In this document: one piece after another, positions 12,201 through 21,200 of the stretch | Position numbering within the stretch: position 1 is the stretch's first letter | Layout of the letters: each line of letters opens with the position of its first letter | Assembly (NCBI GenBank): GCA_944989445.1 | Contig: CALYLW010000559.1 | Coordinates: 248,001 to 312,000, forward strand | Direction: 5' to 3' | Source of the DNA: Ampullaceana balthica | Lineage: Eukaryota; Mollusca; Gastropoda; Lymnaeidae | Length of the DNA: 64,000 nt | The notes under the pieces: generated by a model | The model's database searches: none | The model's input: the letters and a program-made list of their open reading frames with translations, nothing else | What the model was told of the DNA's origin: nothing | Position numbers and translations under genes: made by a program

Positions 12201-15200
12201 TTTACTTTACTCAGCTACTATAACCAACCAAGCGCTTTAACATTCAGTCCATTGTTAACTAACCACTATCCTGAGGCGGCTCACCTTCGGCCAAGCTCAA
12301 AGTTGTTCTTGAGGAACTCATTGAAGGGCACCATGTGCTGCTCCTTGCTGAACAGCAAGTGGTTGGCGATGTTCTGCATGATCTTGCACATCAGGGTCAG
12401 ACCACGTTTGATCCTGGGGGTCGGCTCCTCCTCAACAATACCCGACTCATAAGGGGAGACTGTATGCAAACAGGACACGTAAAGTTAATTTTCTTGGAAG
12501 AAAAGAAGTTGCAAGTAGGCTGTTTTATAATGATTTTATAAACAAATTTACAATACATCTACCATGGTTCTTAAGCTATTTCATGTAATTAATTAATTTT
12601 AAAAAAAACAAATTAGCTCACTTATCAATTTCCTACATTAATTAGCATCAAATGATCTGCTTATGACTGTTATTTCCTAGCTCATTCTCTTAAACGTACC
12701 GGGATTAAGATTTCTCTTGAGTTTTATCACAAAAAGTTTACAACCCTTGAGCACTAGCTGTAATTACAAATAGCCTATTTGCGTTACAAGATGAAACCAG
12801 CCGACACCTTGTTTTTGGGGATGACTTTGTATAACTTTACAACAGATCACAACATGAACAATTGTGACTCGTTTATTATTTCTTTCAATTTATTTTTGCC
12901 AACTTTTTCACGAGTAAAATAATTATTTCTGTCCTACGGATCATCTCTTTACATCCATTTTGAAAGATAATACCTCACCCCCCCCCCTCCCCCAATTATG
13001 GTCAAACACATTTTGTATAGATAGATGGGCTTTAATTATTGAGATTGTGACACTTAAGCACGAATGAACTGTCTGATTTAATGCACTGCGCACTGCCACT
13101 TTTCAAGATATCATGTATACAGTTACTGTAGGGGCACGGTGGTCGAGTGGCATGCGCGCTCGGCTGGCGTACCGATGGTCACGGGTTCGAATCCATGTTA
13201 CGGCAAGGATTTGTTCCCGGGGCGTCCCTGAGTCCGCCCAGCTCCGAATGGGTACCTAACACCAGTTAGGGAAATAAAGGCGGCAGGGTAATGCGTGGAA
13301 CCCTTATAGCCGTGGCCAGTGAACGCTGCATCACTTGCCAACATACATGGTCTGTGGACGCATTAATCTTCTGTATGGAAGGAGCGTCTGTATAGATAAG
13401 ACATCCAAGACGTCTACTGTTGGTCCAACCAATTATTATAAAAACTATTTTGTAGCTCTAATATTGACATTCTTGCGTTTGACCACAGAGGCTATGCTAT
13501 CGAAAAACAACTGCTATTCTTTTTAAACATTTTATATTTTCCAACTTCTTATCAATAATAGTGGACTTAAGGGTAAACAAGTATGATAATTTGAACAATA
13601 AAACAGAGTTGCGGAAACTGATATAGATTTATTTTTTTTTAAAAAACAACCACTTTACATCTTCCTTTACAAAATATCGTACAGCATAATAACGAGGGAC
13701 AAGGCTGAATATTTCACACTGATTGTGGTGAAGAAAGAAATTTTAATGCCAAACAAAGCTAAGCTATAATATGAATATATGTTACAAGGTGCAGATTAGG
13801 GGAGACACTCTGGTTTGGTTTGAAATATGCAAAAAGCAAATTAGAAATAATAGTGATCTTGAACAAAAATTAACAAAAAAATTTAAATAAAATATCTAAA
13901 TGAAAAATTTTAAAATCCTGTCTGAATTGATGTAGTCTAAAATATAAATTGGAAAATAAATTAAAATGTAAAAAAATGAACAATTCGTAAAAAAAAACAT
14001 ATAATAATTTTATTTTACTGACAAATCAGGCAGGTTATAAAATTATGGCCTCCACTATCATGCTGAAATTAAAATATTATTTTTTTAAGAAGAAATTTAT
14101 TTTAAAAAATTAAAACTCACAAAAGGAATTAGTAAAAATTTGAATGAGAAATGATTAAGTTTTAAAGGCAAACTCATTGAATTATTACTTTAAAAAACAA
14201 TAAGCTTATGTTGATCTGCGCTCTATTTCTTTGTTATAAAATATTTTAAATTAAATGACAAACAGCTCAAAAGGTAACTTTTTACATATGATTTTCTAAA
14301 AATGAACGGATTATCGCTGAGAAATCAGGCAAGTATTAAACTGTGTCTGGATTTAATCAGATAAATTCAAATGTGTTAAATGAAAAGGGAAAATAAATTA
14401 TGAAAATGAGACCGCCGAAAAAAAGTGCATTTGGTCAATATTTTTTCGTTGGAATTTTTCACGTCCTAATCAATTTATTTTTAACATTTCTTTTGTTGCT
14501 TTACCTTTAGTCCATTTGTAGTCTATTGACATTTTTTCTCTAATTTTATAAACCATCTACTATTTTGCAACCAACACTGACATAAATCAAATGCATCACA
14601 ATATATTAATTTGATTTTAGTAGTGTGTTAAATCTCACCGACAACGTCACGTCAATGCTTTTATTATTTTTTTTTCTCGTGCAAATTGTGATATGAATGT
14701 TAAGTTGGCAAGACAGGAAGATTCACAAGAAAATGGGAAACTAAGTTACTACTTGGGAACGAATTCTAAAATAAAAAAATAATGAAATAAATAAATAAAG
14801 TAAAATTTTAGCCATGGTTAAAAAAAAAGTAATAACCTCACATGTACTTTAAAAAAGGGGGAAAGAAAAAGGAGTTATCTCCACTGCCATGTAAAAAAAA
14901 ACAACAAAGAGTTTACTTTATCTTCCTCTCCAAGAGTTTACCTATAGCAGGGTTGATGAAGCGTAAGAATATCACAGTCCCAATGACAGTCCACACTGCC
15001 TCTGAACTACTCTGCTGAAAGCGCTGAGTTACGACCTGATAGAGGCAGTGACACATGCTGCGCAACTTGGCTGGGAACCTAAGTGAGCAACAACACGGTG
15101 GAGAAAAAAAATCACAGATAAGGCGTGTCGTTTGGCGCAGGTGGCGGAGTGGGAAGTGGGTGGTCGGATGCCAGCACAAGCTTTTCATTCTTACAGTATT

Positions 15201-18200: not shown

Positions 18201-21200
18201 GCCCCAGGCAGAGAGAGTTATTTGTTTCTGTATACCTGAAAGTCGTGTTTCTGAAGTTTAGTAACCAGACTGAGTACATCTTAGATTAAAATTTTTTTTT
18301 AAAAAGTTGTTAACTCCAAGCATGATATGTAGTGAGACCAGCATTCCAGCTCTACAGGCAGACATAAAATACGGCTAAATGCAACAACAAACAGAAACAG
18401 CTTTAAGCAGGAGGTAAAAAAACAAAAAACAAATTCTAAGCTAATGTGTTTAGCTGAAGAAAGGAAATATCTTTTTTTGGGGTCTGGGGGTGTGGGTGTG
18501 TGTGCGCCTTGGAGATATAATGGGGAACAACACGCAATAAACAACTCAGGGTTCAAGATGTGCTTAGTTCATGTTAAGATACCATAAGCCTCTTTCAAAG
18601 GCTGTGGTGTAACTGCAGCTAGTCGGTAATACCCACCCCCACTTCACTAAGAATAACTACGCCTTACGGCTGCTAATACTTCCGTGTGTAATAAAATCAG
18701 GAATCCTTACTAAGGTACGGGTTGTAAAACCGGAGGAATATAAATGTGCCCGTGTCCGTTTTGCAATCTGGCGGCAGACGCAGACTCAGCACCTGGTCCA
18801 GACAGTGGCACATAACTCTCAGCTTCTGGGGAAACCTGGAAACACACAGTTAATAGAGTGACCGATCCCTTTCGTTCTTAGCAAGCTTGTTCCGCCACAC
18901 AAAATTGCTTGAAAAAAAAAGAAAGTCTTGATTAAATAAAATTCGTAGCCACAAATTTTGTGTGCCCAACAAGATCATGCAAGTTTAGTCTTTTGGTTTC
19001 AAGTAAATAAGAATATGACATGGACTTCTTAAGATAATGACACATGTCATAGCTTTCGTGATATTGAAATTAAGGGCTTTTTTTTTCTTGCTTAGGATTA
19101 AGAGTGCGTGTTTCTCAAGCTGGAAATATTTAGTGCGTACTCTCCCCAATGAAAACGGAGGGTGCACTTAAATATTAAAATCTCATTTTTTTAACACCAA
19201 CTAATTTTATCAACAGGCTTGCCACTGTTCAAAGGAAATTAAAAAATGTTCAAATCTGTCTACATTCTTCACTCCACTTGGATTTGCTTGTTTGGACAAA
19301 CTTCCCTTTTTATCTCCACAACCTTTTTTTTTAAAGGTGCCGGACAAGATTGTATACCAAGCCAACTGACAAAAATTTGAGCATGCACCTAGTTAAAATA
19401 AATATATCATCTAGTAACAAAGCCTATACCATCCTGGAGTGGATGTGAGAAACCTAATTAGAGGACGTAGGGTAAAAAAATATTTAAAACATTAAAGAAA
19501 TTAGAACCACAGAAAAGCTTAATAATGGACCATTTTGGGATACTTTGGTACTTCTCAACAGGCAATCCACACGTAATGATAGAATTTGACACGTAAAGTT
19601 AGATTCTTTTATAATTAGCTATTAGCTTTTGGGTATTAATTTAATCTGAATAAAGAGAAAAGTTATCAAGGAAAAATTGTTAAAATTCATTAATAAAAAA
19701 ATATGAACCAACATTACAGGGATGGTTGTGAAATACTACTATAGACAATGCCAGTATCAGAGTTACACATTATTTCATTATGAATGGTACTTTGCTCAGC
19801 TGTCACATGAAATGGAAGTCAGATTTAAAGGGGCTAAATGTCTGGCTAGCCTGCAGGTTTGTATCCCAAAGAGGTACATTTTCCAGGTAAGGAATGCTAC
19901 CACACACACATCCACACACAACTCATGCAGCTTTCAATGGACGGGAAAACAATGTACAATGGCATGTGATGTCAGATCTCAGGTTAATAACATAACATGA
20001 AATATCTGTATTTAATTTGGACAACAAGTTTTATGTTGCAAAATGAAATATTTCAACTCAGGTGGGATATCAGGCCTAGGTGTGAGTATTATGTTTCAGA
20101 ATGAAATATCTCAACTGATGTGTGGATATAAGGCCTAGGTGTAAGTATTATATCACACAATGAAATATTTCAACTCAGGAGTGATAATAGTACTAGGTGT
20201 GTGATAAATGTTTTGGCTAAGGGAAAGGAATATTGTAATCAGGAATACTTCTATTTATTAGATTCATTTTCGTGACTGTTGTAAAAAAAAATTTTAAGCG
20301 ACGGGGTAATTTAAAGTAGTTAAAATAACAAAAAGTCATCATCAAGTGCAGGTCTCTATCAAGTTGTAAGTTAAGCTTATCATTGGTACAATTTTTAATG
20401 GTTGCTTTCAAAAGTACCCTTAATACAAACTTTGGTTGATAAAAAATGAACAGATTTTTGTGCATGTTAAAAAAAAATGTTCACATGGCTGTAAGCCATA
20501 AAACAAAGGTTGTAGAAATATTTTGAAAGATGCAATGGGTTGGATGAGTTTTTAAAATGACAGCTGGCTGTGATGTCACTGTGTGAATGACAGCTGGCTG
20601 TGATGTCACTTTGTGAATGACAGCTGGCTGTGATGTCACTGTGTGAATGACAGCTGGCTGTGATGTCACTGTGTGAATGACAGCTGGCTGTGATGTCACT
20701 GTGTGAATGACAGCTGGCTGTGATGTCACTGTGTGAATGACAGCTGGCTGTGATGTCACTGTGTGAATGGCAGCTGGCTGTGATGTCACTGTGTGAATGA
20801 CAGCTGGCTGTGATGTCACTGTGTGAATGACAGCTGGCTGTGATGTCACTGTGAGAATGACAGCTGGCTGTGATGTCACTGTGTGAATGACAGCTGGCCA
20901 TGATGTCACTGTGTGAATTTGAATAGACATTTGAGTTAACATTGGCCCACATTTCCCTTGACTCTGGACTTTTGACACTGCTATTAGGGAGAAAGAGAAG
21001 TTAATTTGCTTTCAAATTCAAACCACTTGGGCTGGCTGGAACGACCGGCGGATTATTTTATTTGACACTGCAAAAACCTGGTCCGGGGACTCAACGGCTG
21101 TTGGGGCGGCGACCACACTCCTGGGCTGAGAACTGAAGACAGAACAAAGCTCGTAAGAACAAGACGGTAAGAACTTTAGAGCAACTTACTGTGGGGCAGA

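What the first reader, a model, noticed from the sequence alone, without database searches (positions are those of the whole stretch)
14942..18835. Two mutually exclusive versions of the NF1 GAP-domain exon carrying the FLR..NP motif
Exons 31a (18711-18835) and 31b (14942-15078) both encode QFP-K-LR--MCHCL-QV ... GT-IFLRF-NP, both accept phase 2 and leave phase 1, and both have consensus splice sites. One and only one keeps the frame: joining both, or skipping both, shifts exon 32. Silent positions have diverged widely while key residues are kept, which suggests long maintenance rather than a recent dead copy. 31a replaces the near-invariant NPA alanine by tyrosine and INP by YNP, next to the arginine that steadies the arginine finger, so the isoforms should differ in Ras-GAP activity. 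In vertebrates, alternative exon 23a is inserted inside this same segment (after human Q1370) and lowers GAP activity, so this would be an independent route to regulating the same surface. I know of no described mutually exclusive NF1 exon pair; that is a statement of my knowledge, not a search result.
Basis: partly seen in the sequence, partly recalled or inferred. Interest (0 to 1): 0.92.

Follow-up and report, generated by a model that had tools for sequence, protein, structure and literature searches.

The report
Ancient alternative exon pair in neurofibromin
A pond-snail neurofibromin gene carries two interchangeable versions of the exon that builds part of its Ras-switching site, and the same two versions occur in other snails, a sea slug and bivalves, so molluscs appear to have kept two forms of this tumour-suppressor protein for a very long time.

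Summary
The window holds most of an NF1 gene on the minus strand, nearly identical to Lymnaea stagnalis neurofibromin. Exons 31a (18835-18711) and 31b (15078-14942) are tandem homologues in the same phase. Either alone keeps the frame; both or neither shifts it into stops. Silent sites are saturated while 22 of 41 residues agree; 0 of 20,000 neutral simulations reached that.

Predicted proteins show the pair is widespread. Of 27 mollusc proteins in hand, 5 carry an a-type exon, 21 a b-type and 1 both. Pomacea isoforms X4 and X9 differ by this exon plus three short inserts. The 7 a-type exons form one clade (99/96), the 22 b-type another (97/87); a gastropod-only duplication is rejected (p-AU 0.003).

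Corrections: NPA to NPY is the window's own; the constant differences are Tyr/Phe for Ile1393 in a, and a 4-residue insert before the FLR motif in b. The 31a donor is weak. No reads were available: exclusive use is inferred from frame, changed Ras-GAP activity is a prediction. My searches found no description in print.

The parts
21190..21282 (-).
   Evidence: Spliced model open in frame
18711..18835 (-). Exon 31a, 125 nt, a-type: [41 protein letters not shown]; strong acceptor TTTCCAG|G, weak donor TTA|GTAAGG
   Evidence: a-type exons in P0003, P0021, P0024, P0025, P0026, P0122
15079..18710 (-). Intron between 31a and 31b, 3632 nt; too long for mutual exclusion by crowding of splice sites
14942..15078 (-). 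Exon 31b, 137 nt, b-type with a 4-residue insert: [45 protein letters not shown]
   Evidence: identical to Lymnaea stagnalis P0004
12285..12459 (-). Exon 32 ([27 protein letters not shown]..), common downstream partner
21816..22003 (-). Shared exon holding the arginine-finger segment ([13 protein letters not shown]), present in both isoforms
   Evidence: alignment to human neurofibromin; the name arginine finger R1276 from PMC7437355 (passage)
1288..48388 (-). NF1 gene model, 33 exons from the ATG at 48388 (a few small exons not placed, the acceptor at 28015 wrong); the gene runs on past the low end of the window

Best explanation
31a and 31b are a functional pair of tandem-duplicated alternative exons in the neurofibromin gene of a lymnaeid snail, one of which is chosen per transcript. 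SHOWN by sequence: tandem homologous exons, same phase, either one alone keeps the frame, both coding under constraint, and the same two exon types in gastropods and bivalves. SHOWN in database proteins only: Pomacea isoforms, identical over most of their length, that carry one or the other. INFERRED: one duplication no later than the gastropod-bivalve ancestor; exclusion kept by frameshift and nonsense-mediated decay of wrong joins plus regulated recognition of the weak 31a donor, not by steric crowding; and a switch in the GAP-related domain between a compact surface (a) and one with four extra residues a few positions before the FLR motif (b). Both forms keep R1276 and R1391, so I expect both to be active GAPs with different strength or Ras preference (about 0.5 likely on its own), in effect similar to vertebrate exon 23a but by a different device.
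For: Frames and joins. Constraint: (22 of 41 residues kept at pS 0.915; best of 20,000 neutral simulations 21). 31a is 35 of 36 identical between the window and Elysia crispata, while the two proteins are 92.1% identical over the model and 97% in the neighbouring GAP stretches. The pair in other molluscs. Pomacea X4 and X9 agree at 2790 of 2805 aligned residues; of the 15 differences 14 lie in exon 31 and one at the edge of a cassette insert. One a clade 99/96 and one b clade 97/87 in a 43-row tree; gastropod-only duplication rejected p-AU 0.003, heterobranch-only 0.015. P1377 and absence of the VWTV-type insert are shared by 7 of 7 a rows and 14 of 14 rows from other phyla, whereas 22 of 22 b rows have Q1377 and the insert, so a did not arise from a finished b. 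Intron 31a-31b is 3632 nt. RasGAP domain score: 94.6 bits with 31a, 121.9 with 31b, 44.9 with neither.
Against: No reads were available, so exclusivity and expression are not observed here. The isoforms are database predictions; whether reads support them was not seen. The 31a donor is weak: 47% of all GTs on the strand score as high with the gene's own matrix, 8.6% with a recalled generic one. The Elysia crispata model carries both exons in one protein, in the way a cryptic donor would give; I read it as a prediction artefact, but a minor both-in isoform is not excluded. 31a changes faster than 31b (window to Pomacea 30 of 41 against 43 of 45) and fits the RasGAP profile less well. The tree rests on 41 columns with a warning about few columns. 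21 of 27 mollusc proteins show only b, although records clustered at 90% can hide isoforms; the L. stagnalis record P0004 is one of them.
Confidence: 0.87

Rival explanations
1. 31a is a dead or dying duplicate exon, not used or only noise-spliced in this snail lineage.
For: Weak donor; faster change than 31b, including the NPY seen in no other complete a-type row; lower domain score with 31a than 31b; the L. stagnalis record P0004 carries only b.
Against: Open frame, both splice sites present, 22 of 41 residues kept at saturated silent sites; 35 of 36 residues identical to Elysia crispata, of another panpulmonate group; a-type exons in two bivalves.
Confidence: 0.06
2. Alternative, but not mutually exclusive: transcripts with both exons in frame exist through a cryptic donor at 18731, giving a longer GAP domain as a third isoform.
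For: The Elysia crispata protein P0003 has this structure; the same join is in frame in the window, and with the gene's own matrix the cryptic donor scores 0.6, slightly above the ordinary 31a donor at -0.9.
Against: With a recalled generic matrix the cryptic donor scores -6.27, below all 33 model donors (lowest -2.62); the product would repeat 35 residues inside the GAP core.
Confidence: 0.06
3. Separate duplications in several mollusc lineages converged on the same look.
For: Independent origin of such exon pairs is on record for mrp-1 in helminths, annelids and molluscs, as told in a passage of PMC7434440; the exon alignment is short.
Against: One a clade at 99/96; gastropod-only and heterobranch-only duplication rejected (p-AU 0.003 and 0.015; groups named after seeing the tree); besides 1377 and the insert, a and b rows share no state at seven aligned sites.
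Confidence: 0.07
4. The pair arose within molluscs after nemerteans split off, the a-type losing the b insert and regaining proline 1377.
For: A tree with nemertean b outside a plus mollusc b is not rejected (p-AU 0.07); no a-type was seen in the two nemertean records.
Against: It needs exact loss of a 4-residue insert and a reversal at 1377; nemertean and mollusc b exons group at 97/87.
Confidence: 0.2

Closest known systems
Tandem duplicated exon substitution events (mutually exclusive exons), studied for human genes in PMC9741552 (passages seen)
   Same: Adjacent homologous exons, one used per transcript, often ancient, swapping one homologous stretch of an otherwise identical protein.
   Different: That paper's main text has no occurrence of NF1 or neurofibromin (term search). 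The gene, the clade and the place in a Ras-GAP catalytic core are new to me.
Vertebrate NF1 exon 23a (isoforms with and without it)
   Same: Alternative splicing that alters the same stretch of the GAP-related domain; in human it goes with about tenfold less GAP activity (passage of PMC8580823).
   Different: 23a is a 21-residue cassette inserted between Q1370 and V1371 (PMC8580823 passage). The mollusc pair swaps 41 for 45 residues covering human 1357-1397; b's extra four lie after 1383. Separate device.
coq-2 exons 6a/6e of nematodes, flatworms, annelids and molluscs (PMC7434440, passages seen)
   Same: Mutually exclusive exons remodel an enzyme core and occur in molluscs; a precedent for switching catalytic properties by exon choice.
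   Different: Other gene and chemistry; equal-length exons in C. elegans; function shown by exon deletions there.
Calcium channel Ca-alpha1T exon pair, found across protostomes including molluscs (PMC9741552 passage)
   Same: Very old exon pair that reaches molluscs.
   Different: Ion channel, wider range of phyla.

Membership tests
Mutually exclusive tandem-duplicated exon pair | Adjacent homologous exons, same strand | tested here: met
   Profile search finds these two strong copies in the window, E 4.9e-29 and 6e-22, next 0.061; 22 of 41 residues identical
Mutually exclusive tandem-duplicated exon pair | Same splice phases, either one keeps the frame, both or none break it | tested here: met
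   exception a weak cryptic donor at 18731
Mutually exclusive tandem-duplicated exon pair | Both exons under coding constraint | tested here: met
   35 of 36 residues of 31a shared with Elysia crispata
Mutually exclusive tandem-duplicated exon pair | Transcripts carry one or the other, never both or none | tested here: inconclusive
   Predicted isoforms of Pomacea and Mytilus edulis carry one; Elysia crispata model carries both; no reads available
Mutual exclusion by steric crowding of a short intron | Donor and branch point of the intervening intron too close to splice (criterion recalled) | tested here: not met
   Intervening intron 3632 nt; branch points were not mapped
Neurofibromin GAP-related domain | Orthologous to NF1, RasGAP domain with either exon | tested here: met
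   Isoform a: best solved relatives are human neurofibromin, E 1.2e-171, aligned over 1-367 of 370; PF00616 94.6 bits (a) and 121.9 (b)
Neurofibromin GAP-related domain | Arginine finger and FLR arginine (human R1276, R1391) kept | tested here: met
   [10 protein letters not shown] in a shared exon and FLR in both 31a and 31b
Neurofibromin GAP-related domain | Ras-GAP activity of each isoform | not testable with these tools
   Needs an enzyme assay
Vertebrate-type exon 23a cassette | Optional insert of 21 residues between Q1370 and V1371 | tested here: not met
   Here an exon is swapped, not inserted; in the model no intron falls at that point

The most novel reading that the evidence does not exclude
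Molluscs, and perhaps the common ancestor of molluscs and nemerteans, evolved a splice switch that retunes the Ras-GAP core of neurofibromin by swapping the exon that carries the FLR arginine, at the same surface where vertebrates insert exon 23a. Two lineages would thus have reached splice control of Ras shut-off at one site, and the mollusc version would be about half a billion years old or more (age recalled, not computed).
Probability: 0.45. Interest if true: 0.78.

Novelty: new member of a known kind. Interest (0 to 1): 0.66.

Why it matters
Neurofibromin shuts off Ras, and in mice splicing of exon 23a in this segment tunes Ras signalling and learning (passages of PMC7692384 and PMC8580823). 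A conserved mollusc exon swap at the same segment gives a natural experiment: two catalytic surfaces of one protein, kept side by side in gastropods and bivalves. Because L. stagnalis, Aplysia and other gastropods are classic learning models (recalled), it becomes directly testable whether splice control of this surface serves neural Ras signalling in both lineages. The exon differences also mark residues (1369, 1393, the loop after 1383) that natural selection has been free to vary while keeping the exon's frame and core motif.

Tried and rejected
Third copy of the exon: none; the next profile match had E 0.061. RNA families above gathering score and tRNAs: none in the window. Pairing of intron sequences that could force exclusive choice: 111 inverted pairs, of which the 25 longest were shown, mostly A/T-rich; with no related genome to test covariation I draw nothing from them. 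The long open stretch between 31a and 31b (16648-16983) as a further alternative exon: no family above its cut-off. Steric exclusion: intron far too long. Separate genes rather than exons: Pomacea X4 and X9 differ only in this exon and three short inserts, and both records show a contig of the same length, 34737321. The Lymnaea maternal transcriptome paper PMC4594767 has one occurrence of neurofibromin, and it is neurofibromin 2. Folding the isoforms was not attempted: a spliced protein is not among the sequences that the tool says it accepts. The scans of viral, bacterial and metagenome contigs were not run, since mollusc DNA is not expected there.

Not found in print: searches for neurofibromin with mutually exclusive exons (7 papers), with mollusc, isoform, exon, with tandem exon duplication and alternative splicing, with gastropod, with oyster; for tandem exon duplication or mutually exclusive/duplicated exons with mollusc (15 of 53 listed); for Ras GTPase-activating with mutually exclusive exons and invertebrate. 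Searches were for human neurofibromin. I judged these by titles and abstract beginnings in the listings, and opened passages of six papers only; no paper was read whole. One unopened paper, PMC5908917, is a proteome of Babylonia areolata that mentions neurofibromin once. The library is open-licence PMC papers only. The isoforms themselves are already in public protein records.
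Full report
WHAT IS THERE. The window carries an NF1 (neurofibromin) gene on the minus strand, from an ATG at 48388 past the low end of the window (with a recalled human query; joints). 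A 33-exon model is open throughout. It is approximate: against the Lymnaea stagnalis protein P0004 a few small exons are unplaced and one acceptor (28015) is wrong. 1473 of 1486 aligned residues match; of the 13 mismatches I take nine as model faults or exon edges and four as true differences (model residues 127, 387, 1205 and 1219). The window is therefore L. stagnalis or a very close relative; Elysia chlorotica P0002 and Elysia crispata P0003 match at 92.1% each.

THE PAIR. 31a (18835-18711, 125 nt) and 31b (15078-14942, 137 nt) lie in that order between exon 30 (ends 21190) and exon 32 (starts 12459). Both accept phase 2 and leave phase 1. Using 31a gives ..[52 protein letters not shown]..; using 31b gives ..[56 protein letters not shown]... 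Both together or neither shift the frame into stops. Introns are 2354 nt (30 to 31a), 3632 nt (31a to 31b) and 2482 nt (31b to 32); G+C is 0.52 and 0.50 in the two exons, 0.49 in 31 other model exons and 0.34 in these introns. No further copy of the exon was found in the window.

SPLICE SITES. The 31a acceptor is strong: 29 of 32 true acceptors score lower and 0.5% of all AGs score as high. The donor TTA|GTAAGG is weak: only 1 of 33 true donors scores lower with the gene's own matrix, and 47% of all GTs score as high. With a generic matrix recalled from memory it scores 0.46, above 3 of 33 true donors, and 8.6% of GTs are as good. So 'consensus sites' is half right. A cryptic donor at 18731 would join 31a to 31b in frame; with the gene's own matrix it even scores slightly above the ordinary donor (0.6 against -0.9), but with the generic matrix it scores -6.27, below all 33 true donors. 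The Elysia crispata prediction P0003 has the protein that this join would give.

CONSTRAINT. Over 41 aligned codons the two exons share 68 of 123 bases and 22 of 41 residues; only 7 codons are identical; pS is 0.915 and dN 0.41. Copies mutated without selection to the same base identity kept 10.9 residues on average and at most 21 in 20,000 runs; 22% had no stop. This simulation puts all change on one copy and knows nothing of indels, so it is a rough guide; the comparison with other species below carries more weight.

OTHER SPECIES. Three protein searches were made. One search (isoform a, exon region) gave 1 protein of 4 candidates. One search (Elysia chlorotica GAP region) gave 738, of which the best 120 were listed. 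One search (Pomacea a-type exon) gave 40 of 53 candidates. Among the 27 mollusc proteins in hand (P0002-P0026, P0038, P0122, counting the unnamed P0010, whose exon resembles that of Octopus), 5 carry an a-type exon: Gigantopelta aegis X2, Babylonia areolata X4, Mytilus edulis X6, Pomacea canaliculata X4 and Tegillarca granosa. One, Elysia crispata, carries both (its a part is cut off after FLRF); 21 carry b only. Records are clustered at 90%, so b-only counts do not mean that a is absent. Two nemerteans have the b-type; two annelids, a brachiopod, five arthropods and six deuterostomes in the alignment have one exon without the insert that is neither type (the arthropod rows have 2-3 extra residues elsewhere). 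Pomacea X4 and X9 agree at 2790 of 2805 aligned residues: 14 of the 15 differences fall in exon 31 and one at the edge of a cassette insert, beside three short inserts. Mytilus edulis X6 and P0018 differ there too, but among 10 blocks.

TREE. 43 exon rows (39 chosen proteins plus two window rows and two from P0003; three redundant mollusc b records, P0007, P0015 and P0017, and most arthropods and vertebrates were left out; insert columns dropped, 41 columns kept) give one a clade of 7 rows at 99/96 and one b clade of 22 rows at 97/87. The tool warns of few columns and of a long Owenia branch. Held to one clade, gastropod a plus gastropod b is rejected (p-AU 0.00283), as is heterobranch a plus b (0.0149); a plus mollusc b with nemertean b outside is not rejected (0.0705); a plus b against all others is in the best tree, weakly (76/62). 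These groups were named after seeing the tree, which the test's p does not allow for.

DIRECTION. At human position 1377 all 7 a rows and all 14 other rows have Pro while all 22 b rows have Gln; the 4-residue insert after 1383 is in 22 of 22 b rows and in no other row. So 31a did not come from a finished b exon. Besides 1377 and the insert, a and b rows share no state at 1363, 1374, 1379, 1382, 1384, 1393 and 1397. At 1393 the 6 complete a rows have Tyr (5) or Phe (1) against Ile in all 36 others. Asp at 1369 is in 5 of 7 a rows, all gastropods. Tyr at 1396 is in the window alone; the 5 other complete a rows have Ala. The a exon changes faster: window to Pomacea 30 of 41 in a, 43 of 45 in b; window to Mytilus 24 of 41 and 42 of 45; yet window to Elysia crispata 35 of 36 in a and 42 of 45 in b.

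FUNCTION. Human residues in this exon run from 1357 to 1397 (alignment). Passages of PMC7437355 state that R1276 is the arginine finger, and that R1391 of the FLR motif has a structural role in the catalytic pocket, its change to Ala costing 400-fold GAP activity. Both are kept in both isoforms. Passages of PMC8580823 state that exon 23a inserts 21 residues between Q1370 and V1371 with about tenfold less GAP activity. The mollusc swap covers that point and the run up to FLR. RasGAP scores are 94.6 bits (a), 121.9 (b) and 44.9 (neither). My inference is two active forms of different strength; the opposite, an a form that is poor at Ras and acts elsewhere, is open.

HOW CHOICE MAY WORK. Crowding is excluded by intron length. 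The frame penalty plus nonsense-mediated decay would remove wrong joins, and the weak 31a donor makes a regulated, off-by-default exon plausible. No docking sequences could be tested without relatives' DNA. All of this paragraph beyond the lengths and scores is inference.

VERDICT. A real, old, conserved alternative exon pair; a new member of a known kind, in a place where it matters.

Noticed in passing
window 7277-7333, minus strand: A 57-nt cassette exon ([18 protein letters not shown], read in frame between 11505-11359 and 2275-2183) is conserved: the insert SLEV-TENF-CEAAEG-QRL stands in 4 of the 125 proteins in hand (P0003 Elysia crispata, P0017 and P0026 Pomacea, P0024 Babylonia) and is absent from Pomacea X8 and X9. 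A second alternative exon in the GAP region; I made no literature search for it.
   Followed up: partly
window 31308-31459, minus strand: The end of an NF1 exon and its donor are duplicated 80 nt downstream; 74 of the first 75 bases alike in the printed copies (my count). The second donor, 80 nt on, would shift the frame.
   Followed up: partly
window 16648-16983, minus strand: A long open stretch between 31a and 31b with an AG near its start and a GT within it; Pfam gives only PF05290 at E 0.031, below its cut-off.
   Followed up: partly
window 56282-59656, minus strand: Open 1125-aa endonuclease and reverse transcriptase with a C-terminal zinc-finger match below cut-off, a LINE-like element upstream of the NF1 start.
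   Followed up: no
window 25321-26631, minus strand: Reverse-transcriptase match inside an NF1 intron.
   Followed up: no
window 20466-21005: Tandem array with a 30-nt unit in the intron before 31a, open in two minus-strand frames.
   Followed up: no
P0025 Mytilus edulis X6, alignment columns 1031-1066: A 36-residue insert upstream of the GAP domain relative to P0018, perhaps a further alternative exon.
   Followed up: no
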